Shown one piece after another: positions 3,133 through 51,334 of a stretch of 61,535 nucleotides of DNA. Source of the DNA: a virus; IMG/VR virus record IMGVR_UViG_3300021475_000014, positions 1 through 61,535 of that record. One strand, given 5' to 3'. Below the pieces are notes generated by a model, which was given only the letters and a program-made list of their open reading frames with translations, made no database searches and had not been told where the DNA came from. A program made the position numbers and the translations under genes. Position 1 is the first letter of the stretch, and every line of letters starts with the position of its first letter.

Positions 3133-3147
3133 AGGTGCGGGGAAAGT
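3133..3147 (+). promoter_or_regulatory. Phage 15-mer operator-like site A
   Basis: Exact AGGTGCGGGGAAAGT on the plus strand, in the divergent interval between the HTH gene and the gene at 3318. A possible -10 (TAACTT) for the HTH gene overlaps it on the minus strand. One of nine copies in the window. Confidence 0.75.
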
Positions 3148-3317
3148 TAGCGATGACGGACACTCTTACACGCGGTGGCGACAGAATCCGAGCCAATCAG
3201 CGAAGTTGACACGATGAGGAAATGGGCCGTCACCTCACGGCACCCACGATCGGTTAGGCCCGGTGCGCAGTACTCTCGGGCGAAGTCGGCACAGTTCACA
3301 GGCGGAGGTGGGGTGCG

Positions 3318-3953
3318 GTGTCCAATCTGGATGACCTGACCACCCGCAACTCGGCGGCCAACGAGACGATTGAGGGGGAGATAGTCTTCCCCCACACACC
3401 GTGGGACCGCATGCCGGGCGAGTCGGAGAGCGCCTACGCGCACTTTCTGTCCTACCGGGACCTCGGCCAGGACCGCACCATCGCCCGCGCCGCTGACCGC
3501 GCCCACAAATCCCGGGATCACTTCCACCGGCTGGCCACGCAATGGCAGTGGATCAACCGGGCCAGCGCCTACGACACCGAAATGCACCGGCTGTTCACCG
3601 CGAAGGCCGCCGACGAGCGGCGGGAAATGATCCTGCGGCACGCCAAGCTGGCCCGCAACATCATGTCCATCGTGGAAGCCCGGCTACTGACCATCCCCAT
3701 TGACGAGCTGACCCCCACCGAACTGTCCAGGCTGCTGGAAGTCGCGGCGAAAATGGAACGGGCGTCCTGGAACGAAGAGACAGCCATCCGCGCCCGGGGC
3801 GCGTCCACCATCGACGGTGTGGACCTGGCCCACCTGGACGAGGGTCAGCGGGTCGCCCGGCTCGAAGCGCTGCGCGCTGAGCTGGACCGGCGCATCACCG
3901 CCCGGCGCTCGCTGGCCGCACCCCGCGAGGTGCCGGTGGACGAGCCAGCCTGA
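3318..3953 (+). CDS. Putative terminase small subunit / HTH packaging protein
   Basis: 211 residues, GTG start after GGAGGT. PGESESAYAHFLSYRD and the following RTIARAADRAHKS resemble the N-terminal HTH of proteins annotated as small terminase or phage DNA-binding proteins; the rest is helical and charged. It is a lone plus-strand gene in a minus-strand arm, 43 kb from the large terminase gene on the map, so the assignment is tentative. Its last 59 bases overlap the convergent gene ending at 3895. Confidence 0.5.
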   Translation: MSNLDDLTTRNSAANETIEGEIVFPHTPWDRMPGESESAYAHFLSYRDLGQDRTIARAADRAHKSRDHFHRLATQWQWINRASAYDTEMHRLFTAKAADERREMILRHAKLARNIMSIVEARLLTIPIDELTPTELSRLLEVAAKMERASWNEETAIRARGASTIDGVDLAHLDEGQRVARLEALRAELDRRITARRSLAAPREVPVDEPA

Positions 3954-4119
3954 CCTGGACGCATTGGTCGCACACGTCGGCCATCCCGTCGGCGCTGACC
4001 CGCCACCCTTCGGCCGCCAGGATGCGGCGTGCCCGGTCCACCGAGGCGCCGGCCTGCGGCAGCAGCTCGTCGGTCAGGCACGTTTCGCAGCGGATCCTGA
4101 CCAACACCCGCGCGCTCAC
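3895..4119 (-). CDS. Small two-CxxC protein
   Basis: 74 residues. CETC near residue 11 and CDQC near residue 50 form a likely zinc site around a short helix (AEGWRVSADGMADV). GTG at 4119 has GGAGA 8-12 bases upstream. The C-terminal tail is Arg/Pro-rich and overlaps the end of the plus-strand gene. Function unknown. Confidence 0.65.
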   Translation of the reverse strand: MSARVLVRIRCETCLTDELLPQAGASVDRARRILAAEGWRVSADGMADVCDQCVQVRLARPPAPRGVRPASAGR

Positions 4120-4242
4120 CGCGCACCGTCTCCAACATTGCGTGTCTGAGCCATTGACGCAGCGTAATCCCGCGCCGGCGTGCCAACGGCTAATTTGGTG
4201 CCAATTGGTGGCTAGTCTGGTAGCAAGCTCGTTGTGCAGGAT

Positions 4243-4641
4243 ATGAACGAACTGCTGGCCTCCACGATGGACACCGTGCCCCCCGGGTGGACCATCATCA
4301 ATGTGTTCGGCATCGTTGCTGGCACGGAGGCCCGACCCATCAACCCGTTCCTCGACGGTGTCAAGCGCCTGCTGCCCGAGCACGAACGCGACTACCCGGT
4401 GAAGTTGGCCAACGCCCGGCTGGCCGCCGTGGATCGGATGATGGCCAACGCCCGGATGGTCGGCGCCAACGCCGTACTGGGCGTGCGCTTCGACCACCGG
4501 CCACTGTCCAGCACGTGGGTGGAGCTGTGCGCCTACGGCACCGCCGTACGGTTGGCCCGGCTGCCCGATGCGGATCCGCCGGCACCCCGTCCGCGTCGGG
4601 CTGCCGAAGATGACCGTGCACACAACAGCGGCGCCGGGTAG
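4243..4641 (+). CDS. YbjQ/DUF74-like domain protein
   Basis: 132 residues from ATG at 4243 (a GTG at 4234 is possible). The sequence IINVFGIVAG, then AVDRMMANARMVGANAVLGV and a final WVELCAYGTAV strand match the YbjQ (PF01906-like) fold, a small pentameric domain common in bacteria with no settled function. It is an isolated plus-strand gene between two minus operons, preceded by a possible -10 TAGTCT (4213-4218) and followed at once by a strong hairpin: a monocistronic moron-like unit. Confidence 0.75.
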   Translation: MNELLASTMDTVPPGWTIINVFGIVAGTEARPINPFLDGVKRLLPEHERDYPVKLANARLAAVDRMMANARMVGANAVLGVRFDHRPLSSTWVELCAYGTAVRLARLPDADPPAPRPRRAAEDDRAHNSGAG

Positions 4642-4659
4642 GCAACCCGGCGCCGCTGT
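4625..4659 (+). terminator. Perfect 15-bp hairpin terminator
   Basis: ACAGCGGCGCCGGGT (4625-4639), loop AGGCA, ACCCGGCGCCGCTGT (4645-4659). The stop codon of the YbjQ-like gene lies in it. No T run follows, as often in actinobacteria; it also closes the minus operon coming from the right. Confidence 0.8.
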
Positions 4660-4741
4660 CTGGATGAGCCCCGACCGTCTCGCAACCAGAGCGTGTCCAC
4701 TGTAGCGCAAAACATCGACCAATGTTGTCGGCCGCAACATT

Positions 4742-4939
4742 TCAGTCGTCCGTGTCCCAGGTGTGGTAACCCCGGCACGGGAACACGTCCGGGTCAGCCC
4801 GGCGGAAGATCCCCGAGTCCGTCAACGCCCCGCACATGCAGCACCGATCCGGCTTCGCGTCGATCACCCGGTGCGCCACCCGGTGCGGCTCCAGACTGCG
4901 CCAACAATCCCAGCACAGCAGATGGCTCCACTTACTCAC
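4742..4939 (-). CDS. Small cysteine/tryptophan-rich protein
   Basis: 65 residues with CWDC near residue 9 and CCMC near residue 33, typical of a zinc ribbon. The GTG at 4939 overlaps the previous stop as GTGA. Last gene of the 4.7-10 kb minus operon. Function unknown. Confidence 0.65.
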   Translation of the reverse strand: MSKWSHLLCWDCWRSLEPHRVAHRVIDAKPDRCCMCGALTDSGIFRRADPDVFPCRGYHTWDTDD

Positions 4940-11040: not shown

Positions 11041-11075
11041 AGCTTAGCCCGGCTACACGAGAATGTGTAGCCGGG
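11041..11075 (-). promoter_or_regulatory. Palindromic promoter, copy 1
   Basis: On the minus strand, CCCGGCTACAC-N6-GTGTAGCCGGG is followed by TAAGCT (plus-strand 11041-11046), a good TANNNT -10. The palindrome covers the expected -35 zone. Five more copies keep the same spacing. Confidence 0.7.
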
Positions 11076-13295: not shown

Positions 13296-13327
13296 AGCTT
13301 AGCCCGGCTACACGCGATTGTGTAGCC
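13296..13327 (-). promoter_or_regulatory. Palindromic promoter, copy 2
   Basis: GGCTACAC (13306-13313), N6, GTGTAGCC (13320-13327); -10 TAAGCT on the minus strand at 13296-13301, ten bases from the palindrome as in copy 1. Confidence 0.75.
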
Positions 13328-13760: not shown

Positions 13761-13792
13761 ACCGTAGCTCGGATACACGCAATTGTGTAGCC
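13761..13792 (-). promoter_or_regulatory. Palindromic promoter, copy 3
   Basis: GGATACAC (13771-13778), N6, GTGTAGCC (13785-13792), one mismatch; -10 TACGGT at 13761-13766. Confidence 0.7.
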
Positions 13793-14948: not shown

Positions 14949-15218
14949 CGTGGGACGTCCGGCCGCGTCCCACTCATCCCACAGCGCGTAAATCGCTGGC
15001 AGGCTTGACGTCTGGCCTGTGTGGCAGTCATACGCGGCTTGCGCGTAGATCCTTGCGAAGTGGTAGGCATCCTCCGAGGGGGCAGGGTGGCCACCGTTGG
15101 CCGCGTCCAACCGCCCACGGGCGTAACCGAGCGCTTCGGACGTCATTTCGTTCAGGTTGAGGTAAGCGTTGTGCCCAAGCGTGGCTTTCGCCAGTGCGCG
15201 GATTTCGCTGATCATCAT
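14943..15218 (-). CDS. Hypothetical protein, 91 aa
   Basis: MMISEIRALAKATLGHNAYL, all helical, ending LWDEWDAAGRPTV. GGAAGGAACCAACC before the ATG. Preceded by the most perfect palindromic promoter (15264-15305). Confidence 0.6.
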   Translation of the reverse strand: MMISEIRALAKATLGHNAYLNLNEMTSEALGYARGRLDAANGGHPAPSEDAYHFARIYAQAAYDCHTGQTSSLPAIYALWDEWDAAGRPTV

Positions 15219-15263: not shown

Positions 15264-15305
15264 ACAATAGCGCGGCTACACAATCTCGTGTAGCCGCGCT
15301 ATTGT
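15264..15305 (-). promoter_or_regulatory. Palindromic promoter with 18-bp arms
   Basis: ACAATAGCGCGGCTACAC (15264-15281), N6, exact complement 15288-15305. Contains the family core GGCTACAC-N6-GTGTAGCC and -10 TATTGT on the minus strand. The long arms also make a hairpin able to terminate the gene upstream on the minus strand or act as operator. Confidence 0.75.
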
Positions 15306-16380: not shown

Positions 16381-16770
16381 GCGCTCGCAAGTGGACGGAC
16401 GCCGTCCACATGCGAGCGCGATGCACGTGCACATGCACGTGCATGGGAGCGGAGCGGGACGCTCGCAAGTAGCCGGCTTGCGGGCGTGTCCACAATGGAG
16501 TGGCTACACGGAACGTGTTGCCAATGTGGAGTGTCGACGCCCGTCGATGCGCAGCCGGGCAAAGCGGGGCAAGCCGGGCGCCAGTGTTGCCGCAAAGTGT
16601 TGCTGCGCAACGCTTTCGCGCCGATCCGAGCGCTCCGTCACTGACACGCTGCCAGTGACTCCGATGTGGATGCTCCACATCGGACCGGCCATCGGCCTGC
16701 GCCGATGCGCGTGCATCGGCTCGCGCCGATGCGCCGCGCGCGGCGCGTGTGAGCAAGCTCACACGCGCCG
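16381..16770. other. Array of at least six hairpins, no convincing gene
   Basis: Perfect or near-perfect stems: 16381-16419 (9+8 bp, one A/A mismatch), 16421-16444 (11 bp, 2-base loop), 16489-16530 (containing GGCTACAC-N5-GTGTTGCC), 16637-16659, 16661-16683 (10 bp, loop TGC), 16701-16720 (8 bp) and 16741-16770 (14 bp, loop AA). Open frames on both strands here are compositional. This density is unlike the rest of the window. Candidate structured RNA, origin or packaging element. Confidence 0.8.
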
Positions 16771-19923: not shown

Positions 19924-20178
19924 TCAGACAATGGCTGCGGGCAGTTGGTCATCGCCGATCAATTCAGCCAGGCTGATGTGTACGGCGCTGCCGTAGGCCA
20001 CCAGATCGTTGATGCCCATGCCGCGTTGGCCTTTCTCCCACATGCACACCGCCGAGGTGGTCCGCCCGATCTGTCGGGCCACCACCGCCTGCGTCATCCC
20101 GGCTGCCTGCCGGGCGGCACGTAGCCGCCGGCCCAGGTCCGGGTCGCAGGCGGTGCGGGTGTTCCACAATGCGTTCAC
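19924..20178 (-). CDS. XRE-family HTH regulator
   Basis: 84 residues. DLGRRLRAARQAAGMTQAVV followed by ARQIGRTTSAVCMWEKGQRG is a textbook Cro/C1-type HTH, with a C-terminal LAELIGDD. GTG at 20178 overlaps the preceding stop. Short like Cro-type regulators. It sits inside the structural/cytoplasmic operon, not in the integrase region, so it may control the lytic genes; the phage 15-mer is a candidate target. Confidence 0.85.
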   Translation of the reverse strand: MNALWNTRTACDPDLGRRLRAARQAAGMTQAVVARQIGRTTSAVCMWEKGQRGMGINDLVAYGSAVHISLAELIGDDQLPAAIV

Positions 20179-20462
20179 GTCCGGGCATCCTTCTTGTCGG
20201 CCAACATCCACGCCTGCACATGCGGGTGGCACAGCCGCAGTTTCCCGGCCGGGGAGGTTCGCATCCACCGTGCCGGCAGCGGCGCCGGCCCCACCCAACC
20301 GTGTTCGTGCAGGATCAACACACAGTCGTCGCACGGTGTGCGGCACTCCCCGCGCGAGCGCAGCCGCCGGTAGGTGGGCCGACCCCGGGCATGCTCGCCA
20401 CGCCCGGTCGGTAACGCCAGGCGCAACGCTGGTACATCCTCGACCAGAAACGGCTGCGTCAT
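20175..20462 (-). CDS. Hypothetical protein, 95 aa (WhiB-like spacing unlikely)
   Basis: Contains CRTPCDDCVLILHEHGW, a CxxxCxxC cluster, and a final CHPHVQAW. It could hold zinc. The ribosome site of its ATG (20462) is provided by 15-mer copy B (AGGTGCGGGGAAAATG). Confidence 0.65.
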   Translation of the reverse strand: MTQPFLVEDVPALRLALPTGRGEHARGRPTYRRLRSRGECRTPCDDCVLILHEHGWVGPAPLPARWMRTSPAGKLRLCHPHVQAWMLADKKDART

Positions 20463-20475
20463 TTTCCCCGCACCT
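20461..20475 (-). promoter_or_regulatory. Phage 15-mer site B
   Basis: AGGTGCGGGGAAAAT on the minus strand, one mismatch, overlapping both the stop of the preceding gene and the start codon of the next. Here the motif must also act as the ribosome-binding site. Confidence 0.65.
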
Positions 20476-20641
20476 ATTTCTTGGCCGCGACAACCCGGGC
20501 GGTGCGGATCACGCCGGCTCCGCCCAGTTCCGCGTCGTTGACGGTGCGCGCCTCGTCCAGGCTCGGGAAGTCGGTGTGTGTGCCGTCCGGCCGGTGCAGC
20601 CGGAACACGGTGATGGCGGTCTGTCCACAGTTGCAACCCAT
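20474..20641 (-). CDS. Hypothetical protein, 55 aa
   Basis: MGCNCGQTAITVFRLHRPDG, a short beta-rich protein with an N-terminal CxC, ending ARVVAAKK. Typical small gene near the head genes of actinophages; function unknown. Confidence 0.65.
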   Translation of the reverse strand: MGCNCGQTAITVFRLHRPDGTHTDFPSLDEARTVNDAELGGAGVIRTARVVAAKK

Positions 20642-20925: not shown

Positions 20926-22980
20926 CTAGCGGTGCACCAGCGCTGCCAGGGCTGTCAGCTCGTCCGTACGGGTACGACCGATGCTGGCTGCCAGCACCTG
21001 GACCGCCTCGTCGGCCAGCGCCGTTGCCGCAGCCAGAATATCCGTCAGTTCACTTTCCGTGGACGTTTCTGCACTATCCACATAGGCGCGCTGGTTCGGG
21101 ATGATCAGCGACTCGACCGCGCCGGACGCGGTCAGCCCCGCCTGCACCGGGTATCCGGGTACCGGGACGGCGGTGACCGCGATCATTTCCAGGCCGGTGC
21201 CGGGCCGTTCCTCCCGCCAGTCACCGGAGGGTGGGAAGGCGAGCATGTTGTAGATCTGCGTGTCGGTGGCGCTCGGGGTGAGCGCGCCGTGGAAGTAGAT
21301 GCCGTGCGCGTCTTCGCCGGTGATGCCGACCGCCGGCACGGAGGCAACATCGTCGTAGTGCCGGGTGGCCGCCGCCATCCCGACGCCCGCGTCGGTGGAG
21401 GCGTGCCCGCCACCGACCGAGTAGGCGCCCGTCTTGATGGCGTTGCCTTCGGCGGTGATGGTGGTGCCCAGCTTGAAATGGCAGTAGTCGCAGCGGCTGT
21501 GCGGCGGCGGCACGCAGATGCCGGCGGCGACGAACGAGCGGTGGCAGGTTTCCCAGTCGGCGACGTGCCCGTACACCTCACCGTCAGCGGTGACGGTGAT
21601 CGGTGTCGGCCCCGGCAGGGCGATCGGGTCGAAGTAGGCGCCGGGCGGGCGCAGATGCCGGCGGTAGCTGGTCGCTGCGGTGACGGTCGCGGTGCTTGTG
21701 GCGGCGGCCGTCACCGAGCCACCAGAGGTCGAACCGGAAGATGCAGGTCCCTTTCTAGCACCCCGCACGCGGCCCATGAGTCGGTCCACAGTGTTGCGTG
21801 CCGTCTTTTTCGCCGCCGGGGTCAACCCTTTCAGCGCAGTCCGCGCACCGCCCAGTGAAGCGGCGGCAGCACGCACCGCGGCCGGCACGATCATCAATGT
21901 CCCACCGATGACGTCGGCGACCGGCAGCTTGTAGCCGGCAAGCGTGGTCGGGTCGCCTTTCGGGTCCCGCCACAGGAACGCGGTGCCCAACTTCGTCGCG
22001 TTGACACTGCCGTCGTCGTTGGTGGCCCACTTCAACACCCGCGATTGCGCCGCCGAACCATCCCAGGTGGTCGCGTCGGCGGCGATCGGCAGATCCACAG
22101 TGGCGGCAGCGGTCAGTCCCCCGCCGCACGATTCGCAGCCACCGGCCGCCTCAACCCCGGCCTGCGAGCCGGCAGCCTCCGCCGAGTCGGTGGCGGACAT
22201 GCCTGCCTGCGCGCTGGCGGCGACGTTGCTGTACAGCTCGTCCAGCACATCGGCGAGCGCCTGCATGTCGTTGTCGTCAATGTGCGCGGTGGGGGGACCG
22301 CCCGCGTCGATGACGGCCGCCGCGTCCAGCAGCGCATTCGGGATGATGGTCAACGCTCCGCCGAGGACGTCGGCGACCGGGAACTGGTAGTCGTCCACGC
22401 TGTTGCCGTCGGAGCCGGGATCCTGGTACAGGAACCCGGAGCCCAACATGTCGGTGTCCACCAGGCCGTCGTTGCCGGTGGCATTGGCCAACATCCGGGC
22501 GGTGGCGGTGTGCGGATCCCATTCGGTGTCCAGAGGTGCGACCGGCAGGTCCGCATCGACGGTGATGTTCTCGTCGTTGGGTTCGCCGTCGTCCCCGGTC
22601 GGGTTGGTGGAGGCGTCCCCATCCGGGTTGAACGTGTTGATGCCCGGCACCGTCGAGTCGGGGGTGAACGCGGCAGCACTGAGACTGTCCAGGACGGCGG
22701 CGGTGATCATCCGGCCGGTGCCCCGGATCGCCAGGTCCACTTCGGCGTAGGTCGGCCGCAGGATGGTGGGCGCCTGCGCGGTGAAGTACTGGACCTGAGC
22801 GTGCACCTCGTCCCCGGTGACGCCCAGGCCCAGCACCCGCCCGATGGGGTTGCCGTCGGCGCCATACACGGGCAGCGGGTACGCGGCTGCGGTGATGGCG
22901 GCGACGTCGGAGAGCACACCCCGGGGCAGGCTCGGGTTGAGCGCGTTGGCCCGCGCCACGAGGACATCGATGTAGGCCAT
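20926..22980 (-). CDS. Capsid maturation protease-like protein with duplicated domain
   Basis: 684 residues. After an N-terminal region come two copies of a roughly 75-residue unit (W-D-x3-A-x2-R-x-L..., FLYQDP/FLWRDP, PVADVLGG/PVADVIGG, IIPNALLDAA/IVPAAVRAAA) at about 165-245 and 300-375. The C-terminal half carries GEVYGHVADWETCHRSF, the CDYCHF pair, then AAATRHYDDVASVPAV and EDAHGIYFHGAL, matching actinophage capsid-maturation (HK97 prohead) proteases. Place next to portal supports this. GAGGAG precedes ATG 22980. Confidence 0.7.
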   Translation of the reverse strand: MAYIDVLVARANALNPSLPRGVLSDVAAITAAAYPLPVYGADGNPIGRVLGLGVTGDEVHAQVQYFTAQAPTILRPTYAEVDLAIRGTGRMITAAVLDSLSAAAFTPDSTVPGINTFNPDGDASTNPTGDDGEPNDENITVDADLPVAPLDTEWDPHTATARMLANATGNDGLVDTDMLGSGFLYQDPGSDGNSVDDYQFPVADVLGGALTIIPNALLDAAAVIDAGGPPTAHIDDNDMQALADVLDELYSNVAASAQAGMSATDSAEAAGSQAGVEAAGGCESCGGGLTAAATVDLPIAADATTWDGSAAQSRVLKWATNDDGSVNATKLGTAFLWRDPKGDPTTLAGYKLPVADVIGGTLMIVPAAVRAAAASLGGARTALKGLTPAAKKTARNTVDRLMGRVRGARKGPASSGSTSGGSVTAAATSTATVTAATSYRRHLRPPGAYFDPIALPGPTPITVTADGEVYGHVADWETCHRSFVAAGICVPPPHSRCDYCHFKLGTTITAEGNAIKTGAYSVGGGHASTDAGVGMAAATRHYDDVASVPAVGITGEDAHGIYFHGALTPSATDTQIYNMLAFPPSGDWREERPGTGLEMIAVTAVPVPGYPVQAGLTASGAVESLIIPNQRAYVDSAETSTESELTDILAAATALADEAVQVLAASIGRTRTDELTALAALVHR

Positions 22981-24829: not shown

Positions 24830-25150
24830 CTAGTCCTCCCGCTCCGGCAGGTCACTGTCGGGCTCAAATGGCGCATGGCCGAGCGCACCAACCACATAGG
24901 ACAGCGCGAAAATGGTGATGACGACCCGATACCACGGGTGCATCCACCAGAAATACGCGGTGATCGCGACCAACGCCGACAGCCACATGCCGATACACCA
25001 CGAACAGTCCAGGAGGTACCAGACGTAGCCGTCTTTGCGCACCCGATGGGCCACGAAGTACCGCCACGCCCGCGAAATGCGGTCAGCGCGAACCAACACC
25101 GTCAGTCGGGCGACGGCCAAAGCCAACAGCAGCAGCTCCAACCAGGACAC
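24830..25150 (-). CDS. DUF1360-like membrane protein
   Basis: 106 residues: an amphipathic/hydrophobic N-terminus (LLLLALAVARLTVL), CSWCIGMW followed by a transmembrane helix (LSALVAITAYFWW) and a second one (VITIFALSYVVGAL). The AxARLT, D and C-x-W-C pattern matches DUF1360 proteins of sporulating bacteria and phages. GTG at 25150. Copy C of the 15-mer lies upstream. Confidence 0.7.
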   Translation of the reverse strand: MSWLELLLLALAVARLTVLVRADRISRAWRYFVAHRVRKDGYVWYLLDCSWCIGMWLSALVAITAYFWWMHPWYRVVITIFALSYVVGALGHAPFEPDSDLPERED

Positions 25151-25174
25151 ACGAGCAGCATACGGTCGCGTGAT

Positions 25175-25189
25175 ACTTTCCCCGCACCT
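25175..25189 (-). promoter_or_regulatory. Phage 15-mer site C
   Basis: Exact AGGTGCGGGGAAAGT on the minus strand in the 48-base gap before the DUF1360-like gene and portal. A TATGCT hexamer lies 12 bases downstream. Confidence 0.75.
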
Positions 25190-25198
25190 ATGAACGGT

Positions 25199-25444
25199 CT
25201 ACTTGCGACCGCCGTGCAGCAGTTTCGCGTGCGTCGCCGGCCACATGCCGGTAGCTCGACGGTGCAGCAGGTTGCAGTAGCCTTTTTCCCGTCCCGGCAT
25301 GTACTTGGCCAACTGGCGGGTGCATCGGTTGAAGTCGCCGCCGGAACCCCACCGGATTTTTGCGGCGCCTTTGCCTTCGGCCCAGTAGCGGCGCAGCGTC
25401 TCGGCGTTGCCCCGGCCCCGGGTGCCTTTCGGGCGAGCCATCAT
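25199..25444 (-). CDS. Conserved actinophage basic protein, 81 aa
   Basis: AETLRRYWAEGKGAAKIRWG, then DFNRCTRQLAKYM and KGYCNLLHRRATGMWP, a pattern I know from small proteins beside actinophage portal and head genes, whose role is unknown. Strongly basic. Confidence 0.7.
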   Translation of the reverse strand: MMARPKGTRGRGNAETLRRYWAEGKGAAKIRWGSGGDFNRCTRQLAKYMPGREKGYCNLLHRRATGMWPATHAKLLHGGRK

Positions 25445-27903: not shown

Positions 27904-27990
27904 TGGATTCCTCGCAAAAAGGAGAGTCCTGAGCCCGGCCCGCAGCCAGCAGCAGTTGCACGGCCAGATTACCGCAGCAAGTACCTGAAT

Positions 27991-28005
27991 AGGTGAGGGG
28001 AAAGT
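27991..28005 (+). promoter_or_regulatory. Phage 15-mer site D
   Basis: AGGTGAGGGGAAAGT, one mismatch, between the divergent tail-tube-like and capsid genes. TATGCT (28010-28015) follows on the plus strand. Confidence 0.7.
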
Positions 28006-28095
28006 CCGTTATGCTGGCGAGCGAACTCGACGCTGGCTGCGGGCCGGTCGAAACGAGCACCGAATCGTTTCTTCCCGCGCTTCTCGGAGCATCCA

Positions 28096-32652: not shown

Positions 32653-32936
32653 GCGCGTTCAAAGTTGTCGTCCACTACACCTGCACCGACCAGGTGATCA
32701 TCGCGTGGGGCGCACCCGATTTCAGCACCAGCCAACACGTGTCTTCCCCGGCGACCCACCTGTACGCCACCGGCGGCACACACAACATCACCGTTGGGAA
32801 CCAGCGCACCGGCGAACTGTTCAGCGGCACCGTAACCTGCCCCGTCGCCATGAGCTGGGACGAGGTTGCGGCCCTCTACGCGAGCTGGGATGCCCTCTCC
32901 GCAGCGAACCCGAGCTGGGATGAGGTGCCCTACTAA
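32649..32936 (+). CDS. Single degenerate PKD-like protein
   Basis: 95 residues. VIIAWGAPDFSTSQHVSSPA replaces the WGDG signature, followed by THLYATGGTHNITV, so a diverged single PKD domain, then a tail with repeated SWDEV/SWDAL. ATGA overlap upstream, TAATG overlap downstream. Confidence 0.7.
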   Translation: MSAFKVVVHYTCTDQVIIAWGAPDFSTSQHVSSPATHLYATGGTHNITVGNQRTGELFSGTVTCPVAMSWDEVAALYASWDALSAANPSWDEVPY

Positions 32937-32988
32937 TGGCCAACCCACCCGCCGGGTCCACCCCCACCTACCACCTGCGCTGGCCCGG
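32932..32988 (+). repeat. 57-bp exact direct repeat, copy 1
   Basis: Identical to 33501-33557; covers the stop/start overlap and the first codons of two tandem paralogues. A diverged third copy begins at 34067. Confidence 0.9.
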
Positions 32989-33505
32989 CGGATCCGATCC
33001 TGCCGAAGGCCCCACCGGCTTCCAGAACCTGGCCAACGACACCGAGACAGCACTGGAAGCCACCCGGAATTTGCCCACCTACCCGTGGGTCACCCTGGCT
33101 CACATCCCCGGCACAGTGGGTGCCGGCGCCACCGTCAGGGCCGCCTGGACGCTCTCCGGCCAGTCCGCCGACAACATCCACAGTCTCGGCACCGGCGGAA
33201 CCAGTCTCGTCACCACCCGCCCCGGCGCCTACCTGCTCATGTTCAAATTCCGCACCGTCAATACCGGCACCATCGTCAACGGCGTCTACCTTCAGGCGTT
33301 CTGGGGGCAGAGCGTCGGCGGCCAGCTCGACTTTCTGGTGCCCATCTACGGCAGCAGCAACATCGACCTGTTCGGCCAGGGCGTGGTGCGGATCCTCGCG
33401 CCCGTCAGCGGCGTCGGCTTCACCTGCGACATCTTCAACCAGAGCAGCCAGGGACAGACGTTCGGCAACACCAGCTACGCCCACTTCTACCGGGTGGGTG
33501 ACTAA
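32936..33505 (+). CDS. Tandem fibre-like paralogue 1
   Basis: 189 residues. N-terminal MANPPAGSTPTYHLRWPGGS then a helix (NLANDTETALEA), followed by a beta-rich jelly-roll-like domain (VNGVYLQAFWGQSVGGQLDF; YAHFYRVGD). Similar in design to trimeric fibre-tip or head-fibre proteins. First of three tandem copies. Confidence 0.7.
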   Translation: MANPPAGSTPTYHLRWPGGSDPAEGPTGFQNLANDTETALEATRNLPTYPWVTLAHIPGTVGAGATVRAAWTLSGQSADNIHSLGTGGTSLVTTRPGAYLLMFKFRTVNTGTIVNGVYLQAFWGQSVGGQLDFLVPIYGSSNIDLFGQGVVRILAPVSGVGFTCDIFNQSSQGQTFGNTSYAHFYRVGD

Positions 33506-33557
33506 TGGCCAACCCACCCGCCGGGTCCACCCCCACCTACCACCTGCGCTGGCCCGG
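33501..33557 (+). repeat. 57-bp exact direct repeat, copy 2
   Basis: Identical to 32932-32988, at the start of paralogue 2; a substrate for recombination between paralogues. Confidence 0.9.
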
Positions 33558-34071
33558 TGGCCCCAATCCGGCCGAAGGCCCGACCGGCTACCAGAACCTG
33601 GCCACCGACACCGAGACAGCCATGCTCGGCGCACTACCCCTGTCCAGCAGCGCGCCGTGGGTCATGATGACCGTCGCCGCCGGAACCCTCGCGGCGAGCG
33701 CGAACACGGCGGTTGCCTTCACCATCCGGGCACAGCACGCGGCCAACTGGTTCAGCATGGGCGGCACACAGAACCTGCTCACCACCCGACCCGGCGTCTA
33801 CAGCCTGGACAGCAACATCCGCACACTCGCCACAGGCACACCAGCCTCCGGCACGTGGCTTCAGGCGTACTGGTCCAGTACCGGCGCCGCAGTGCTGGAT
33901 ACCGTTGCTCCCCTGTGGGGCGCGGGCTGGCTCGACATCATCGGCAGCTTCTCATTCCACTACGCCGCACCCGTCTCCGGCAGTGGCCTGACGTGTGTCA
34001 TTCAAAACAGCTCGACCCAGAACCAGACCCTCAACGGCGGTTGGTTCTCCCTCACCTGGTTGGGGGACTGA
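33505..34071 (+). CDS. Tandem fibre-like paralogue 2
   Basis: 188 residues, the same N-terminal 17 residues as paralogue 1, then a diverged beta domain ending LTWLGD. TAATG overlap with paralogue 1 and TGATG with paralogue 3. Conserved head and variable tip suggest receptor-binding or decoration variants. Confidence 0.7.
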   Translation: MANPPAGSTPTYHLRWPGGPNPAEGPTGYQNLATDTETAMLGALPLSSSAPWVMMTVAAGTLAASANTAVAFTIRAQHAANWFSMGGTQNLLTTRPGVYSLDSNIRTLATGTPASGTWLQAYWSSTGAAVLDTVAPLWGAGWLDIIGSFSFHYAAPVSGSGLTCVIQNSSTQNQTLNGGWFSLTWLGD

Positions 34072-34646
34072 TGGCCAACCCACCGGCAGGATCCACGCCG
34101 ATCTATCACTTGCCGTGGCCCGGCGGTCCCAACCCGGCCGAAGGTCCGACCGGCTTCAGAAACCTGGCCCAGGCCATCGAGCCGGCGATCGGTCAGGTTC
34201 GCGGCGACCCGAACACGCCCTGGTGTTTCTGCCCCGTCACCTCGGCCGTCACCGTGGCCAACGGCGCGAACAGCGGTCCGATCCCCATCTCCATCGGCCA
34301 GCAGAGCACGCACGGCGTCTTCTTCGCCGGCACCGCAGGCAGCAATTCCGTCGCCACCAACCGCCCCGGCATGTACCGCTTCCAGATGGGCGTCCGGACC
34401 CGGCTTCTCACCGGCACCGCCAACGCGGGCGGCTGGAACACGCTGTCCCTCGGCATTAACGCTGCGCTGCTTCAGAATTGGGTGATGCGCGCCTCGGGCC
34501 TGCTGTGGTGCGACTTTTGGTTCTCCGGCCTGTTCCGCGTTAACGCCACTACCGACCGGATCACCATCACCTTCACCAATTCTTCCGGTGCCACCGGCTG
34601 GCAGGTTACCGGCGGCCAATTCTGGTGGAACTGGATCAACGCCTGA
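34071..34646 (+). CDS. Tandem fibre-like paralogue 3
   Basis: 191 residues: MANPPAGSTPIYHLPWPGGP start and NLAQAIEPAIGQVRG helix, then a beta domain ending FWWNWINA. More diverged than paralogues 1 and 2 at DNA level. Confidence 0.7.
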   Translation: MANPPAGSTPIYHLPWPGGPNPAEGPTGFRNLAQAIEPAIGQVRGDPNTPWCFCPVTSAVTVANGANSGPIPISIGQQSTHGVFFAGTAGSNSVATNRPGMYRFQMGVRTRLLTGTANAGGWNTLSLGINAALLQNWVMRASGLLWCDFWFSGLFRVNATTDRITITFTNSSGATGWQVTGGQFWWNWINA

Positions 34647-34647
34647 T

Positions 34648-35058
34648 ATGGCGACCCGGCTCGTCCTCTACGAGGGCGTCATCCAGACCTATATCACCGA
34701 GCAGGCACGCCAGCTCGTCACCACCACCGGCGAAGAAGTCATGGTGGCCGCGAAAGTCTTGGCGCCCAAGCGTTCCGGGCTGCTCGCCGCGTCCATCCAC
34801 ATGACACCGTTGAGCATCCGTGGGCTGCGGGTCAGTACCGAGGTGGGCTCCGACCAGTACTACGCGCTGATCGTCCACAACGGCAGCCGACCACACGAGA
34901 TTGACGCCGCGCCCGGCGAAGTGCTTTACCTCGGCCCGCTCGGCTTCGCCACCTACGTCCACCACCCCGGCACGCGCGGAACGCCGTATCTCACGGAGCC
35001 CCTACAGCGTGTAGGGCACCGACTCAACTTCATCGTGACGTCCGAACACGTCGGGTAA
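34648..35058 (+). CDS. HK97 gp10-like tail completion protein
   Basis: 136 residues. AKVLAPKRSGLLAASI, then YYALIVHNGSRPHEIDAAPG and YVHHPGTRGTPYL match the HK97-gp10 family: Pro-x-x-[ST]G-L helix, then the VHxGT-like hairpin. It caps the tail or joins it to the head. Located upstream of the chaperone genes as expected. Confidence 0.85.
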   Translation: MATRLVLYEGVIQTYITEQARQLVTTTGEEVMVAAKVLAPKRSGLLAASIHMTPLSIRGLRVSTEVGSDQYYALIVHNGSRPHEIDAAPGEVLYLGPLGFATYVHHPGTRGTPYLTEPLQRVGHRLNFIVTSEHVG

Positions 35059-35059: not shown

Positions 35060-35074
35060 ACTTTCTCCGCACCT
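35060..35074 (-). promoter_or_regulatory. Phage 15-mer site E
   Basis: Plus strand ACTTTCTCCGCACCT (one mismatch, reversed relative to copy A), between the gp10-like gene and the chaperone. TAGGAT follows at 35082-35087, so the site would cover the -35/spacer of a plus-strand promoter. Confidence 0.7.
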
Positions 35075-35115
35075 TTCCGCCTAGGATCGGCACAGACGTG
35101 TGGAGAGGACATGCC

Positions 35116-35526
35116 GTGAAAGAATTCACCTCGTCAGTACAGGCGCGCACCAACGGGCAACCGCAGCTCCAGAACCTGCCGTTCACATTGGACGGTGTCA
35201 CATACGAGCTGCGGGCGCCCAAGCAAGCGCAGTTGGCGTTCCTGTTCGCCTCCGCTTCGCTGCACCGCAGCTCCTCTGACCGGGTCGCCGCGATGCTCGA
35301 CTTTCTCGAAGCCGCGCTGACACCGCCCGGCGATGAGGCGATCCGACTGCGGCTGTTGGACCCGGAAGACGCCCTGGACCTGGACGCGGTCATGGACATC
35401 ATGAACTGGGCCATGGAGGAATGGACGGGACGCCCCCCTACGTCTGCCAACGGCTCCTCGCGTCGGCCGTCAGTCGTTGGCCGGCGTACGAAGGCCATCT
35501 CCTCCGGCAAGGCGTCGACCCGCTGA
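35116..35526 (+). CDS. Tail assembly chaperone, short form (G)
   Basis: 136 residues from GTG at 35116 after GGAGAGGA. VQARTNGQPQLQNLPFTLDG, then LRAPKQAQLAFLFASAS and the acidic helices LEAALTPPGDEAIRLRLLDP, DLDAVMDIMNWAMEEWTG fit actinophage G proteins, which coat the tape measure during tail assembly. A -1 slip site near the end yields the fusion. Confidence 0.85.
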   Translation: MKEFTSSVQARTNGQPQLQNLPFTLDGVTYELRAPKQAQLAFLFASASLHRSSSDRVAAMLDFLEAALTPPGDEAIRLRLLDPEDALDLDAVMDIMNWAMEEWTGRPPTSANGSSRRPSVVGRRTKAISSGKASTR

Positions 35527-35750
35527 CGCTGATCCTGCCGCAGATGCTCTCCACCATCTATGCCTGGATGACGGAGGGCGCCACGGCGGAGTCTCTCCAG
35601 AAATTCGACCAGGCACTGTACGAGCCCGATGTGGACGCTGAACTCGGCGCCAACGCTCCCGGATGGAGCGACGAAGAGACGTTCGAATCGTTCGAATCCT
35701 TCACCGCCACCATGGGCAGTTCCCGTTCGGTCCTCGGCGCGGTCAACTAG
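35116..35750 (+). CDS. Tail assembly chaperone G-T fusion by -1 frameshift
   Basis: The frame of the G protein contains C CCC CCT at 35433-35439. A -1 slip there gives join(35116-35439, 35439-35750), 211 residues, with T-part YVCQRLLASAVSRWPAYEGH and a final acidic stretch (WSDEETFESFESF). Programmed -1 slippage between G and T just before the tape measure gene is conserved in siphoviruses; the site and the open overlapping frame are seen directly. Confidence 0.8.
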
Positions 35751-35752: not shown

Positions 35753-35767
35753 ACTTTCCCCGCACCT
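35753..35767 (-). promoter_or_regulatory. Phage 15-mer site F
   Basis: Plus strand ACTTTCCCCGCACCT, exact, between chaperone and tape measure genes. TACGAT follows at 35777-35782, the same layout as site E. Confidence 0.75.
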
Positions 35768-35789
35768 TTCTTCGCCTACGATCAAAGCC

Positions 35790-44806: not shown

Positions 44807-44821
44807 AGGTGCGGGGAAAGT
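44807..44821 (+). promoter_or_regulatory. Phage 15-mer site G
   Basis: Exact AGGTGCGGGGAAAGT, starting four bases after the stop of the fibre gene and 13 bases before the lysin start. Plus orientation, opposite to E and F relative to transcription. Confidence 0.75.
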
Positions 44822-44834: not shown

Positions 44835-45809
44835 ATGACGAGCGCACCACCCGACCTGCTCGGACTCCGCTCCCAACTCCAAGGCATCACCGGCCTGAGC
44901 GCAGTCCAGCTCGGCATCGTCGGAGACGTTGCCCACGCCGCCCGGGGCGGCTACCACATGGCCAAGCCACACGTCTCGGCCGGCTCCGACTACTCCACCA
45001 CCCTGACCCGCGACCGCAACGGCCTGAGCGGATACGCCAGCGCCCTGGACATCGGCTACAAGTGGCCCAAGGGCGGCAGCCCCGCCTGGCTGCGGTTCAA
45101 CAACACCCTCGCGGCGCAGCTACGCACCAACAACATCCTGGCTGCCGTCCGGGCCATCAACTACTCGCCGGACGGCAAAGCGAAAATTCGAATCGACCGG
45201 CAGAACGGCTTCGCCAACCAGTCCACCTCGGACACCGTCGATGTCCACACCCACATCGAGTGGTACCGCGACACCGAAGGCAACCGCTCCGCCGGGTTGA
45301 ACTACATCGCTCAGATAGCCCAGAGCGCGGTCAGCAACTCGCCGATTCCCCCGTCCCCGTCGACACCAAAGGAGACAGACGTGCCTTTCCTTGCCCAGGC
45401 CGGATCCACGCCCGGCACCACCACCCAGTACTACCTGTGCGACGGCTTCCGGTCGGCGACCATCACCAAGGACCGGGCCACACTGCTGGCCTACATCGCC
45501 ACCAGCTCCTACGGTTCGGCCCTGACGTTCGGTCGCGCCACCGACGGGAAAGACAACCCGGAGTGGACCTACCTCGGCAACCTGCACGGCATCGTGCGCA
45601 TGGGCTGGAACGCCACCTTCGGCCCGGCCGTCGCCGACAACGCCGGCAACTTCGGCGTCACCATGACCGACGAGCAGATCGACGTCATCGCCACCAAGGT
45701 CGCCGACGCGGTCAGCGAGCAGACCGGCCTGTCCTACGACGACACCGTGAAGGCCGCGCAGCAGGCGCTGCGTGAAGGCGGTGGGATGCCATCGGCCGCT
45801 ACTTCGTAG
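44835..45809 (+). CDS. M15-like peptidase, candidate endolysin
   Basis: 324 residues from ATG with GAGGGAT upstream. GLSGYASALDIGYKWPKGG and DTVDVHTHIEWYRDT resemble the zinc-binding motifs of D,D-carboxypeptidase/endopeptidase M15 (Asp in A-x-D and the HxH), although the first His of the usual SxHxxGxAxD is not obvious. A Pro/Ser linker follows, then a second domain (TTQYYLCDGFRSATITKDRA) and a helix (DEQIDVIATKVADAVSEQTG). Place before membrane proteins suggests lysis. Confidence 0.65.
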   Translation: MTSAPPDLLGLRSQLQGITGLSAVQLGIVGDVAHAARGGYHMAKPHVSAGSDYSTTLTRDRNGLSGYASALDIGYKWPKGGSPAWLRFNNTLAAQLRTNNILAAVRAINYSPDGKAKIRIDRQNGFANQSTSDTVDVHTHIEWYRDTEGNRSAGLNYIAQIAQSAVSNSPIPPSPSTPKETDVPFLAQAGSTPGTTTQYYLCDGFRSATITKDRATLLAYIATSSYGSALTFGRATDGKDNPEWTYLGNLHGIVRMGWNATFGPAVADNAGNFGVTMTDEQIDVIATKVADAVSEQTGLSYDDTVKAAQQALREGGGMPSAATS

Positions 45810-47756: not shown

Positions 47757-47775
47757 CCCACCACCTCCACACTGG

Positions 47776-47790
47776 ACTTTCCCCGCACCT
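47776..47790 (-). promoter_or_regulatory. Phage 15-mer site H
   Basis: Exact AGGTGCGGGGAAAGT on the minus strand, 20 bases before the terminase start. A TAGACT hexamer lies just upstream on the same strand, so the site would fall at the start of the transcript. Confidence 0.75.
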
Positions 47791-47812
47791 TTCCAGTCTA
47801 GGGAGAAACTCC

Positions 47813-49870: not shown

Positions 49871-50112
49871 TTGTGCTCGTGCTCCAGGTTGGCCAGTGCC
49901 CGCGCAGCCTCGGCCAGGCTGCGGCGCAGCTCGGCCAGGTGCAGCCCGGTCAGCGGCGATTCGCCCAGGCCGTCCGCCGCATCCAGCCCCTGGCGAATCC
50001 AGGCACGGATCAGGGTCGACACCGACGTGCGCCGTGCCGCAGCGACGGCGCGCATCCGGGTCTCCATGCGCTCCGGCAGCCGCATTGAGCGCACCACCAT
50101 CGGTTCATCCAT
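49861..50112 (-). CDS. Ribbon-helix-helix (CopG-like) protein
   Basis: 83 residues from ATG 50112. VVRSMRLPERMETRMRAVAA, then RRTSVSTLIRAWIRQGLDAA is a standard ribbon-helix-helix, followed by a coiled tail (LRRSLAEAARALANLEHEHN). Being in the lysogeny region it is a candidate repressor or antitoxin-like regulator. Confidence 0.75.
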   Translation of the reverse strand: MDEPMVVRSMRLPERMETRMRAVAAARRTSVSTLIRAWIRQGLDAADGLGESPLTGLHLAELRRSLAEAARALANLEHEHNHR

Positions 50113-50136
50113 AGCCCTGCCGCCTTCAGATGTGGC

Positions 50137-50169
50137 GGCCCCCGCCGACATGTCCAGTCGGCGGGGGCC
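50137..50169. terminator. Perfect 13-bp hairpin
   Basis: GGCCCCCGCCGAC (50137-50149), 7-base loop, complement 50157-50169, then TTT on the plus strand. Separates the tRNA-like locus from the ribbon-helix-helix gene. Confidence 0.75.
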
Positions 50170-50280
50170 TTTAGTAGGTGATTCCACGAGGGCGTACAGA
50201 GCCCTTTGCTGGACGGTTTAGTAGACCGTTGCAATCCGTGGTGCCAGCGCACGTTTAAGGTCCAGGTCAGATTCAGAGTG

Positions 50281-50352
50281 CATCGTGCTCTGCCGCTGAG
50301 CTACAGAGCCATGTTTGGAGGCTCCGGCGGGATTTGAACCCGCGTCCCGATG
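50281..50352 (-). tRNA. Circularly permuted tRNA-like gene (3' half before 5' half)
   Basis: Read on the minus strand. First the 3' half: CATCG (anticodon stem), GGAC, T arm GCGGG-TTCAAAT-CCCGC, acceptor CGGAGCC, T and CCA (50352-50316). Then AACAT, then the 5' half: acceptor GGCTCTG, TA, D arm GCTC-AGCGGCA-GAGC, A and CGATG (50310-50281). GGCTCTG pairs with CGGAGCC (one G-U) and CGATG with CATCG, so the halves belong to one cloverleaf. The anticodon loop is interrupted and the anticodon cannot be assigned. Alternatives: junction of two tandem host tRNA genes, or an attachment core. Confidence 0.6.
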
Positions 50353-50535
50353 TACATTGCCTGTTCCGGTCGATCTGGCATTCAGTTGTGACACTGAGCT
50401 TCGAGCGAGAAATTCAGCTTGATCGGCGCGGGCGCAACACTGCGCGTTTGCCGACTGAGTCTCACCTTCAACTTCAGCTTGGCCGCCCTCCCGATTCGGA
50501 GTCAGACGGCCGCCCCGCGCTCGTCGCGGGGAGTC
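50353..50535. other. Noncoding interval flanking the tRNA-like locus
   Basis: No gene. A hairpin CCCCGCG/CGCGGGG (50513-50531) closes the 50536-51267 gene on the minus strand. A hairpin GCGCA-GTGT-TGCGC lies near 50437-50450. A weak likeness to a group I intron core (GGCCAAGC...GAAGGTGAGACT, minus strand, 50453-50484) is discussed under rejected items. Confidence 0.5.
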
Positions 50536-51267
50536 TCAGGCGAACAGGTAGTCCGCGATGACGGCGCCGATATGCACGTCGGTGATCTCGGCTTCGTTGG
50601 CCAACTCGCGGGCCATCTTCACCGCGTCCCGCAGCTTCGTCACCCGCTCCAGCATGGCGCGGCGATCCGACTCCGGCATGGCACCGGAAAAGCGGGTCGT
50701 GTTCCAGGTGCCCACGATGACGTCCTCGTAGTAGACCTGCACCTGCGCGGCGTGCTTCTCCGTTGCCGGGGCCAGCACGTGGTTGCGCGGCACCTTTGTG
50801 GTCCGGGTCGTCTGCACCGTGTCCGAGGCGTAATGCCCGGCCGCGTCGGAATAGCTCCAGTTGATGGCCGGGTCCAGCACCGGCAGCTTGCCGACGAACG
50901 TGTGCAGATCCGCGAGCTGCTTCTCCAGGAACAGCAGCGTCGGCACCGGCAAGGCCGTCAGCACCACTTCGCCGTCCACGACGACGTTGGCGCTCGCGTA
51001 GGTGTTGGCAGCGTCCAGGCTGGCCTGGACGTCCAGCAGCCGCGTCAATGCCTTCGCCACGTAGGTGGTGGCGTCCTGCGCCGTGTACTGCACCTTGGTC
51101 GACTCCGACGGGAGTCGGTCCCCTTCGTCGTCACGCGGCTGGTACTCCCGGGCAAGCCCGTTGAGCAGCGGCGTCTTCTGTACCTGGTGGTAGGCGTCGG
51201 TGATCGCGCGCTGCGCGTCCGCCTTCGCCCCCTTGCTCACTGCGATGAGCTGATTGAGCTTCGTCAT
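50536..51267 (-). CDS. Conserved actinobacterial protein of unknown function
   Basis: 243 residues starting MTKLNQLIAVSKGAKADAQR. LPVPTLLFLEKQLADLHTFV, KLPVLDPAINW, TTKVPRNHVLAPATEKHAAQ and VYYEDVIVGTWNTTRFSGAM belong to a well-conserved family that I know from many actinobacterial genomes and phages (I believe DUF7873), role unknown. Own promoter (TAGGCT at 51306-51311, TTACCT at 51329-51334, 17-base spacer) and 15-mer copy I, so probably a moron expressed by itself. Confidence 0.75.
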   Translation of the reverse strand: MTKLNQLIAVSKGAKADAQRAITDAYHQVQKTPLLNGLAREYQPRDDEGDRLPSESTKVQYTAQDATTYVAKALTRLLDVQASLDAANTYASANVVVDGEVVLTALPVPTLLFLEKQLADLHTFVGKLPVLDPAINWSYSDAAGHYASDTVQTTRTTKVPRNHVLAPATEKHAAQVQVYYEDVIVGTWNTTRFSGAMPESDRRAMLERVTKLRDAVKMARELANEAEITDVHIGAVIADYLFA

Positions 51268-51277
51268 GGTGTCCCTC

Positions 51278-51334
51278 ACTTTTCCCGCACCTTTCGGCGC
51301 CAGCGAGCCTAACGACACTCCAGCCGGCAGGTAA
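51278..51334 (-). promoter_or_regulatory. Promoter plus phage 15-mer site I
   Basis: Minus strand: TTACCT, 17 bases, TAGGCT, then AGGTGCGGGAAAAGT (51278-51292, one mismatch) in the transcribed leader 11 bases before the ATG. A clear case of the 15-mer lying just downstream of a promoter. Confidence 0.7.

What the first reader, a model, noticed from the sequence alone, without database searches (positions are those of the whole stretch)
3133..51292. Nine copies of an asymmetric 15-mer, AGGTGCGGGGAAAGT, in gaps between genes
Sites: 3133 (+), 20461 (-), 25175 (-), 27991 (+), 35060 (-), 35753 (-), 44807 (+), 47776 (-), 51278 (-). Five are exact and four differ by one base. They precede the HTH gene, portal block, capsid/tail divergence, chaperone, tape measure, lysin, terminase and a moron. 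Orientation relative to transcription is mixed, which argues against a simple ribosome site and for a protein-binding site. The closest known parallels are the asymmetric stoperators of cluster A mycobacteriophages and the start-associated sequences of cluster K, but the sequence is different from both as I recall them.
Basis: partly seen in the sequence, partly recalled or inferred. Interest (0 to 1): 0.9.

Follow-up and report, generated by a model that had tools for sequence, protein, structure and literature searches.

The report
Dispersed late-gene control sites, uncultured phage
An uncultured phage, probably of actinobacteria, carries nine copies of a short one-directional DNA word in the gaps before its structural and packaging genes; they look like landing sites for the phage's own regulator protein, and a relative uses a different word at many of the same places.

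Summary
In detail: nine copies of AGGTGCGGGGAAAGT (five exact, four with one change), none in the window with two mismatches, all in gaps between genes (one overlaps a stop codon). Eight occupy 8 of 14 gaps in the structural/packaging block (0 of 26 gaps elsewhere); the ninth lies between a three-HTH regulator gene and the small terminase gene. A 98%-identical sibling keeps 7 of 7. A largely colinear relative lacks the word but has a related one (AGGGGGGAGAAAGT-like) in four orthologous gaps clearly and two weakly. A third relative has imperfect palindromes of about 38 bp at three of these places. So places are kept while words change together, as expected of sites read by a changing regulator. 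Beside four copies lie conserved -10-like hexamers, two of them 6-7 nt before a GTG start. Best reading: operators of a phage repressor, most likely the three-HTH protein at 2582-3115, holding late operons and its own off. It works like the repressor-stoperator systems of Cluster A and R4/phiJoe phages but is not a member: unrelated protein, different word, fewer sites, orientation not strict. Repression rather than activation, and the binder's identity, are inferred.

The parts
3133..3147 (+). site 1, exact; 17 bp upstream of the three-HTH gene (reverse orientation to it), in the divergent gap to terminase small subunit
   Evidence: related word in the same gap of G009 (48298-)
20461..20475 (-). 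site 2, one mismatch; overlaps the stop of 20474-20641, upstream of 20175-20321 and the XRE gene
25175..25189 (-). site 3, exact; upstream of the portal block (24830-25150, portal 22991-24826)
   Evidence: G009 counterpart 21871+ with the same 12-bp distance to TATGCT
25157..25162 (-). TATGCT, -10-like, 12 bp after site 3 and 6 nt before the GTG at 25150; same hexamer and same 6 nt in G009 and G010
27991..28005 (+). site 4, one mismatch; divergent gap between major tail protein and major capsid protein
   Evidence: G009 counterpart 18424+ lies on the other strand relative to the genes
28010..28015 (+). TATGCT, -10-like for the capsid gene (TAAGCT in G009)
27966..27971 (-). TAATCT, -10-like for the major tail protein gene, kept in G009
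35060..35074 (-). site 5, one mismatch; right after the stop of 34648-35058, upstream of 35116-35526
35082..35087 (+). TAGGAT, -10-like, 7 bp after site 5 on the gene strand; kept in G009
35753..35767 (-). site 6, exact; right after the stop of 35544-35750, upstream of the tape measure gene
35777..35782 (+). TACGAT, -10-like, 9 bp after site 6 and 7 nt before the tape measure GTG; kept in G009 and G010
44807..44821 (+). site 7, exact; 13 bp before the ATG of 44835-45809
47776..47790 (-). site 8, exact; 19 bp before the GTG of the terminase large subunit
   Evidence: weak counterpart in G009 (883+)
51278..51292 (-). site 9, one mismatch; 10 bp before the ATG of the DUF7873 gene; no counterpart recognised in G009
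2582..3115 (-). three-HTH protein (177 aa), proposed binder; first gene of a leftward run HTH, unknown, small unknown, Cas4-type exonuclease
3163..3168 (-). TAAGAG inside GTGTAAGAGTG, kept in G009; possible -10 of the HTH gene, upstream of site 1 (read by eye)

Best explanation
The nine 15-17-mers are operators of one phage regulon. A phage-encoded protein, most likely the three-HTH protein made from 2582-3115, binds each asymmetric site, probably as a monomer whose tandem HTH units read successive parts of the site. At 25175, 27991, 35060 and 35753 the bound protein would cover the -35 region and spacer of a late promoter; at 3133 (for its own gene), 47776 and 51278 it would lie at or just downstream of a likely transcription start, and 44807 and 20461 lie directly in front of the next gene. 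From both kinds of place, and in either orientation, it would block initiation or early elongation. It thus keeps structural, packaging and neighbouring genes off and dampens its own operon, in which the Cas4-type exonuclease and probably the replication genes follow. Shown: the sites, their places, their concerted change in a relative, the conserved -10-like hexamers at four of them, the regulator gene beside the small terminase gene in window, G009 and G010. Inferred: binding, identity of the binder, repression, operon extent, transcription starts.
For: Nine sites far above chance. Gap distribution: 8 of 14 gaps of 25 bp or more in 19.9-51.5 kb, 0 of 26 elsewhere apart from the HTH/TerS gap, Fisher P = 4e-5; with that gap counted as elsewhere (1 of 27) P = 2e-4; the block borders were drawn after seeing the sites. 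Sibling G003 keeps 7 of 7 sites with the same single-base variants. Largely colinear relative G009 has no copy within 2 mismatches but AGGGGGGAGAAAGT-like words: three copies within 1 mismatch against 0.01 expected in 100 shuffles, all three in orthologous gaps; leaving each of five sites out in turn, four rank second to fifth in that genome with no non-site above them, the terminase one ranks 18. Conserved hexamers: TATGCT-N6-GTG in 3 of 3 genomes before the portal block; TACGAT before the tape measure gene in 3 of 3. Of 94 called window genes only two have TANNNT 5-8 nt before the start and both are preceded by a site (Fisher P = 0.013). The regulator gene lies divergent from the small terminase gene in window, G009 and G010, and its profile finds the G010 homologue at E 3e-10 over all three HTH units. 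Between window and G009 recognition helix 2 keeps 2 of 10 residues and helix 1 keeps 8 of 10 (helix 3: 6 of 13), while the 3' part of the site (AAAGT) is kept and the 5' part is changed. Top structural neighbours of the model are two-unit HTH proteins that bind asymmetric sites (Tc3 transposase, Pax paired domains), at E 0.09 or worse. Sites both upstream and downstream of the -10-like hexamer favour repression.
Against: No binding or expression data. No early or replication promoter other than the HTH leader carries a site, which is odd for a lysogeny repressor. No TTGACA-like -35 was recognised by eye at the four promoters, as is common for activator-dependent promoters. The HTH protein has a weak PHROG match named late transcriptional activator (6e-5, HTH part only). 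Sites 20461, 44807 and 51278 have no counterpart recognised in G009. The G009 word was found by reading the gaps, so its count is partly post hoc; the G009 matrix also scores 15.5 inside a gene (20258) and 17.7 at window 3371, inside the small terminase gene, both unexplained. The coupling of helix 2 to the 5' part of the site rests on two sequences, and helix 3 changed too. The model of the regulator is of moderate confidence (mean pLDDT 61, pTM 0.39, two sequences).
Confidence: 0.5

Rival explanations
1. Late activator sites: the same or another phage protein binds the sites and recruits RNA polymerase to late promoters that lack a -35 element.
For: Sites lie almost only before late genes; at four promoters they occupy the -35 region and no -35 was recognised by eye; weak match of the HTH protein to a late-activator family.
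Against: Orientation relative to the promoter differs between sites and flips between window and G009 at the capsid gap; 44807, 47776, 51278 and the HTH side of 3133 leave only 10-19 bp between site and start codon, with a Shine-Dalgarno-like word there and no room for a promoter downstream of the site.
Confidence: 0.23
2. The sites belong to a different binder: the XRE protein (19924-20178), the ParB-like protein (56874-57881), another phage protein or a host regulator.
For: XRE and ParB-like proteins exist and have homologues in G009; site 20461 lies upstream of the XRE gene with one small gene between; binding was not tested.
Against: XRE dimers usually bind palindromes (general knowledge); the XRE recognition region is nearly unchanged between window and G009 (12 of 15 letters by my count) although the site changed; the HTH gene has a site directly in front of it and is kept beside TerS in three lineages.
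Confidence: 0.18
3. Non-transcriptional DNA sites: partition (parS-like), packaging, or module-boundary sequences that favour recombination.
For: A gene gain or loss between window and sibling begins at site 25175; a ParB-like gene is present.
Against: One junction only; the sites are spread over 48 kb with a close relation to late-gene starts and, at four of them, conserved -10-like hexamers; boundaries of mosaic modules are expected at gene gaps anyway.
Confidence: 0.05
4. RNA-level element: ribosome binding or start-associated sequence.
For: Several copies lie 10-24 bp before start codons; AGGTG resembles a ribosome site.
Against: Two of seven unambiguous copies are antisense to the genes, the capsid site flips strand in G009, separate Shine-Dalgarno-like words follow at 44807 and 51278, no Rfam match at the gathering score in the window.
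Confidence: 0.03

Closest known systems
Cluster A mycobacteriophage repressor-stoperator system (L5, Bxb1, TipsytheTRex)
   Same: Asymmetric short sites, mostly in short gaps, many per genome, an autoregulatory site before the regulator gene, a regulator gene followed by an unknown gene and a Cas4-type exonuclease gene (here two unknown genes), specificity that differs between related phages with the 3' part kept (TCAAG in L5 and Bxb1) and the 5' part changed (passages of PMC9283540, PMC6550527, PMC3029335).
   Different: No sequence kinship of the regulators found; three HTH units instead of HTH plus stoperator domain; 9 sites instead of 24 (L5) or 34 (Bxb1); word differs; orientation not strict; capsid and portal only about 30% identical to named phages.
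R4/phiJoe (Streptomyces) repressor-stoperator system
   Same: Dispersed intergenic sites (passage of PMC10276819); repressor, unknown and exonuclease genes in a row (gp32, gp33, gp34).
   Different: phiJoe gp32 shares no similarity with the HTH protein; the 15-mer is absent (0 within 3 mismatches); phiJoe's own most repeated 15-mer found here is TGTGACAGTGTGAGC.
Cluster K start-associated sequences
   Same: 13-bp asymmetric dispersed word near gene starts (passages of PMC3203893).
   Different: Those lie typically 3-7 bp before the start codon, nearly all in one orientation, in the non-structural half, with an AGGAG core; here structural half, 10 bp or more before the start or behind a promoter, both orientations.
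Cluster O 17-bp repeats (Corndog)
   Same: Dispersed repeats, some intergenic, likely protein sites; leaderless phage promoters predicted there too (passages of PMC4351075).
   Different: Those are palindromic, over 30 copies, about a third in coding DNA.

Membership tests
Cluster A repressor-stoperator | regulator homologous to L5 gp71 (HTH plus stoperator domain) | tested here: not met
   tblastn of the HTH protein against 50,697 phage records: only Achromobacter phage Mano (2 records), E 0.1; 0 PDB chains at E up to 1; no such entry among the 50 structural neighbours listed of 911
Cluster A repressor-stoperator | 13-bp stoperator consensus | tested here: not met
   L5 word: 8 of 13 letters, reached by 17% of random 17-mers; two matches within 2 mismatches in the window, at other places. 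Words of other subclusters not tested
Cluster A repressor-stoperator | asymmetric sites mainly between genes | tested here: met
Cluster A repressor-stoperator | one orientation relative to transcription | tested here: not met
   5 of 7 sites between same-strand genes
Cluster A repressor-stoperator | site before the repressor gene (autoregulation) | tested here: met
   3133, 17 bp before the HTH start; a related word in the same gap of G009
Cluster A repressor-stoperator | more than twenty sites, including an early lytic promoter | tested here: not met
   9 sites, none in 4-18 kb or 51.5-61.5 kb
Cluster A repressor-stoperator | binding silences transcription | not testable with these tools
   needs protein and reporter
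R4/phiJoe repressor-stoperator | regulator homologous to phiJoe gp32 | tested here: not met
Cluster K start-associated sequence | 3-7 bp before a start codon, one orientation, non-structural genes | tested here: not met
Cluster O 17-bp repeat | dyad symmetry | tested here: not met
   asymmetric 15-mer; compare
temperate phage | integrase gene | tested here: met
   51454-52815 (phrog_1, 3e-35) and 54006-54905 (phrog_95, 9e-32); whether they work is not tested

The most novel reading that the evidence does not exclude
A new family of phage regulators with three tandem HTH units binds long asymmetric sites as a monomer and controls late, partly leaderless promoters; within one phage lineage the operator set has been rewritten at fixed promoters, from one asymmetric word (window) to a related one (G009) and, in G010, to imperfect palindromes of about 38 bp whose halves are of similar length (17-18 bp), as if two such monomers bind head to head there.
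Probability: 0.3. Interest if true: 0.75.

Novelty: new variant of a known kind. Interest (0 to 1): 0.55.

Why it matters
Dispersed asymmetric operators are known from Cluster A mycobacteriophages and R4-type Streptomyces phages, each with its own repressor. This would be another repressor lineage with the same layout in a phage group for which no close named relative was found here, suggesting that silencing by scattered monomer sites has arisen repeatedly. The window, G009 and G010 keep several promoters but not the operator word, so they make a ready test set for how a regulator and many scattered sites change specificity together.

Tried and rejected
Chance repeat: rejected. Ribosome or start-associated signal: rejected on orientation and position. 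Known RNA element: none in Rfam at the gathering score.

Wider family by exact word: the 17-mer AWAGGTGCGGGGAAAGT in viral contigs gave 11 stretches, four of them in sibling G003 and seven contigs with one copy each; those seven encode no relative of a window protein at E 1e-4. In genome contigs it gave 40 stretches with one copy each in scattered taxa. By my own rough estimate, not computed in a call, both fit chance. In G003 one further match with two mismatches (3671) is the counterpart of the in-gene window match 42506.

Relatives of the HTH protein: 0 of 394 genomes of the class of a Nocardioides isolate at E 1e-8 (in the rows shown at most 8 candidates per genome were scored, and there was no positive control), 0 of 3; viral contigs gave only G003 and G009; no match in the phage records for the G009 protein. 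A profile run over the fetched distant loci gave, besides window, G009 and G010, nothing better than E 0.002. A portal query on genome contigs found no relative. Portal-profile relatives (80 kept of 277): of 23 loci compared with the window proteins, one is G010 and the other 22 are distant and, by my reading, differently arranged.

Results against or beside my reading: de novo repeat counts in G009, G010 and G011 did not show the operator words among the eight largest families; the first shared-word search in G009 gaps was not above its random controls, except by one gap (6 against 5) at length 13; the G009 word was seen by reading the gaps and then tested, so the leave-one-out ranks are the fairer figure. 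Distances between orthologous sites are no smaller than between non-orthologous ones (both 4.75 for four sites), which suits concerted change, but G009 sites differ more among themselves (2.7) than window sites (0.5). Of six G009 sites two are weak (883 and 14976-14978, the second a run of ten G). RNA folding of the capsid and tail leaders gave nothing. In checking this report I changed confidence in the best explanation from 0.52 to 0.50, because helix 3 also changed and because the G009 matrix has two unexplained strong matches inside genes.


Full report
What the window is. The window is a whole virus record of 61,535 bases (G000). A 126-bp stretch occurs at both ends (13-138 = 61410-61535), so it closes on itself and is probably a complete genome. 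GC is 61-70% in 2-kb steps. Portal and major capsid are about 30% identical to proteins of named, mostly actinobacterial, phages, and megablast of the whole window in three pieces against 50,697 phage records gave only 92 bases in Streptomyces phage Joe. It carries a tyrosine-type and a serine-type integrase gene, so it is probably temperate. The host is unknown; actinobacterial is an inference.

The observation. All nine sites are there, they are the most repeated 15-mer, all lie in gaps (one overlaps a stop codon), and the window has no copies with two mismatches. Of 14 gaps of at least 25 bp in the structural and packaging block eight hold a site; of 26 gaps in the other regions none does; the remaining site is in the gap between the HTH gene and the small terminase gene. 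The gene calls are my own codon-usage calls, not a published annotation, and the block borders (19.9-51.5 kb) were drawn after seeing the sites.

Relatives. The 17-mer finds one true relative by exact word, G003 (46.5 kb, 97-99% identical over the shared parts), which keeps 7 of 7 sites that fall in its range, with the same one-base variants. At this identity that is weak evidence. One difference is telling in another way: at site 25175 the two genomes stop matching right at the site, where G003 has about 200 bp more with, by my reading, a further small open frame. By portal and terminase proteins two more relatives were found: G009 (63.3 kb, largely colinear, matched proteins mostly 40-75% identical) and G010 (58.9 kb, portal 55%, terminase 65%).

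The word changes in concert. G009 has no copy of the 15-mer within two mismatches. In the orthologous gaps it has a related word: HTH/TerS gap, portal block, capsid/tail gap and tape measure clearly, terminase and the gap before the 35116 gene weakly. The 14-mer AGGGGGGAGAAAGT occurs three times within one mismatch against 0.01 expected. With a matrix built from the other four sites, four of five sites rank second to fifth in their genome with no non-site above them, and the terminase site ranks 18. Scored with the window matrix, one of the G009 sites (18423) reaches the upper noise (sixth) and the others are not in the ten best; scored with the G009 matrix, two window sites reach the noise (fifth and tenth), below an unexplained match at window 3371 inside the small terminase gene. 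The 3' part AAAGT is shared, the 5' part AGGTGC is not. G010 shows no comparable match to the G009 matrix (best 13.1); at its tape measure, portal-block and capsid gaps it has long imperfect palindromes of the form ATGGGNNNATCCCGGTGASTCACCGGGATNNNCCCATA, with variations, and a further one at 50446-50482, which tblastn places near the 3' end of the homologue of 20926-22980. Places are kept, words are not. That is the mark of sites read by a protein that changes.

Promoters beside the sites. Before the portal block, TATGCT stands six nt before a GTG in window, G009 and G010, and in window and G009 the site ends exactly 12 bp before it. Before the tape measure gene, TACGAT stands seven nt before GTG in window and G009; in G010 TACGAT is followed by GCGGAT and GTG (one search counted to an ATG in that row because I gave it a wrong end). 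Only two of 94 called genes of the window have TANNNT 5-8 nt before the start, and they are these two. This layout suits leaderless mRNAs, which have been predicted for Cluster O phages (passage of PMC4351075); the starts are not mapped. TAGGAT (35082-35087) and the capsid and major-tail hexamers are kept in G009 too, the capsid one as TAAGCT. Relative to these hexamers the site lies where a -35 element would be, in sense orientation at 25175 and in antisense orientation at 35060 and 35753; at the capsid gap it is sense in the window and antisense in G009. At 44807, 47776 and 51278, and for the HTH gene at 3133, only 10-19 bp lie between site and start codon; possible -10 hexamers at 47795-47800 and 51306-51311, read by eye, lie upstream of the site, the second one with a similar word in G009. 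A repressor can act from all these places; an activator hardly can.

The likely binder. The HTH gene at 2582-3115 encodes three HTH units (Pfam HTH_7 at 11-45, HTH_23 at 115-143, the middle one by the structure model). It has its own site 17 bp upstream. A homologue lies divergent from the small terminase gene in G009 (44% identical by tblastn, 49% in the alignment) and, much diverged, in G010 (profile E 3e-10 over all three units). The plain BLAST search had missed the G010 gene. Between window and G009 the second recognition helix keeps 2 of 10 residues, the first 8 of 10, the last 6 of 13; the XRE protein keeps most of its recognition region. The model's best structural neighbours are Tc3 transposase and Pax paired domains, two-unit HTH proteins on asymmetric sites, but none is significant (best E 0.09). 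The gene order HTH, unknown, small unknown, Cas4-type exonuclease resembles rep, unknown, Cas4 in Cluster A (passage of PMC6550527) and gp32-gp34 of phiJoe. All this points to the HTH protein as the regulator, without proof.

Comparison. It works like the repressor-stoperator systems: scattered asymmetric sites, an autoregulatory site, a regulator gene in a similar place, and specificity that changes between relatives in the 5' part of the site, as between L5 (GGTGGMTGTCAAG) and Bxb1 (GTTACGWDTCAAG) (passage of PMC3029335). It fails membership on regulator kinship, word, number and strict orientation (see the membership table). The words AGGTGCGGGGAAAGT, its complement, its 13-base core and GGGGGGAGAAAGT are in none of the 5.39 million papers of the library as text; figures and supplements are not in that search.

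Verdict. Real and regulatory with high probability; operators of a phage repressor about even odds in full detail (binder and sign of action together), ahead of any rival. A new variant of a known kind.

Noticed in passing
11051-11072, 13306-13327, 13771-13792, 15274-15295, 16502-16522: A second dispersed element: palindrome GGCTACAC-N5/6-GTGTAGCC, five copies within two mismatches (three exact), all in gaps of the 11-16.5 kb region, which holds none of the 15-mers; four copies in G003, none in G009 or G010. It may be the operator or terminator of another gene block.
   Followed up: partly
27935-27950 and 28032-28047: The divergent gap between major tail and capsid genes is flanked by the same 16-bp word GCTGGCTGCGGGCCGG on both strands, so both leaders would carry it; kept in G009 at the same places. 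Folding of either leader is not better than shuffled sequence.
   Followed up: partly
25190-25211: Window and sibling G003 lose homology at the edge of site 25175, where G003 has about 200 bp more with, by my reading, a further small open frame.
   Followed up: partly
L112-L114 (G010): 2759-2795, 50446-50482, 54386, 57912: G010 carries long imperfect palindromes (about 38 bp) at its tape measure, portal-block and capsid promoters, i.e. at places where the window has the 15-mer, and one more at 50446-50482.
   Followed up: partly
3371-3385: TGAGGGGGAGATAGT, inside the small terminase gene, scores 17.7 with the G009 matrix, more than the weakest G009 site; unexplained.
   Followed up: no
window 13-138 and 61410-61535: Exact 126-bp repeat at the two ends; the record is probably a complete circularly closing genome.
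   Followed up: no
32932-34186: Three 120-bp repeats (the other two 93% and 78% identical to the first) at the starts of three neighbouring genes of similar size in the structural block.
   Followed up: no
51454-52815 and 54006-54905: Both a tyrosine-type and a serine-type integrase gene in one phage; the serine-type one matches only positions 244-565 of a 651-position family and may be a remnant.
   Followed up: no
20171-20178 against G003 26218-26746: G003 has about 530 bp more here than the window, near site 20461 but not at it.
   Followed up: no
L197 (phiJoe) 27209 and seven more places: TGTGACAGTGTGAGC, eight copies within one mismatch, by my reading on the strand of the main neighbouring genes, at least one of them inside a gene; perhaps phiJoe's own stoperator word.
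   Followed up: no
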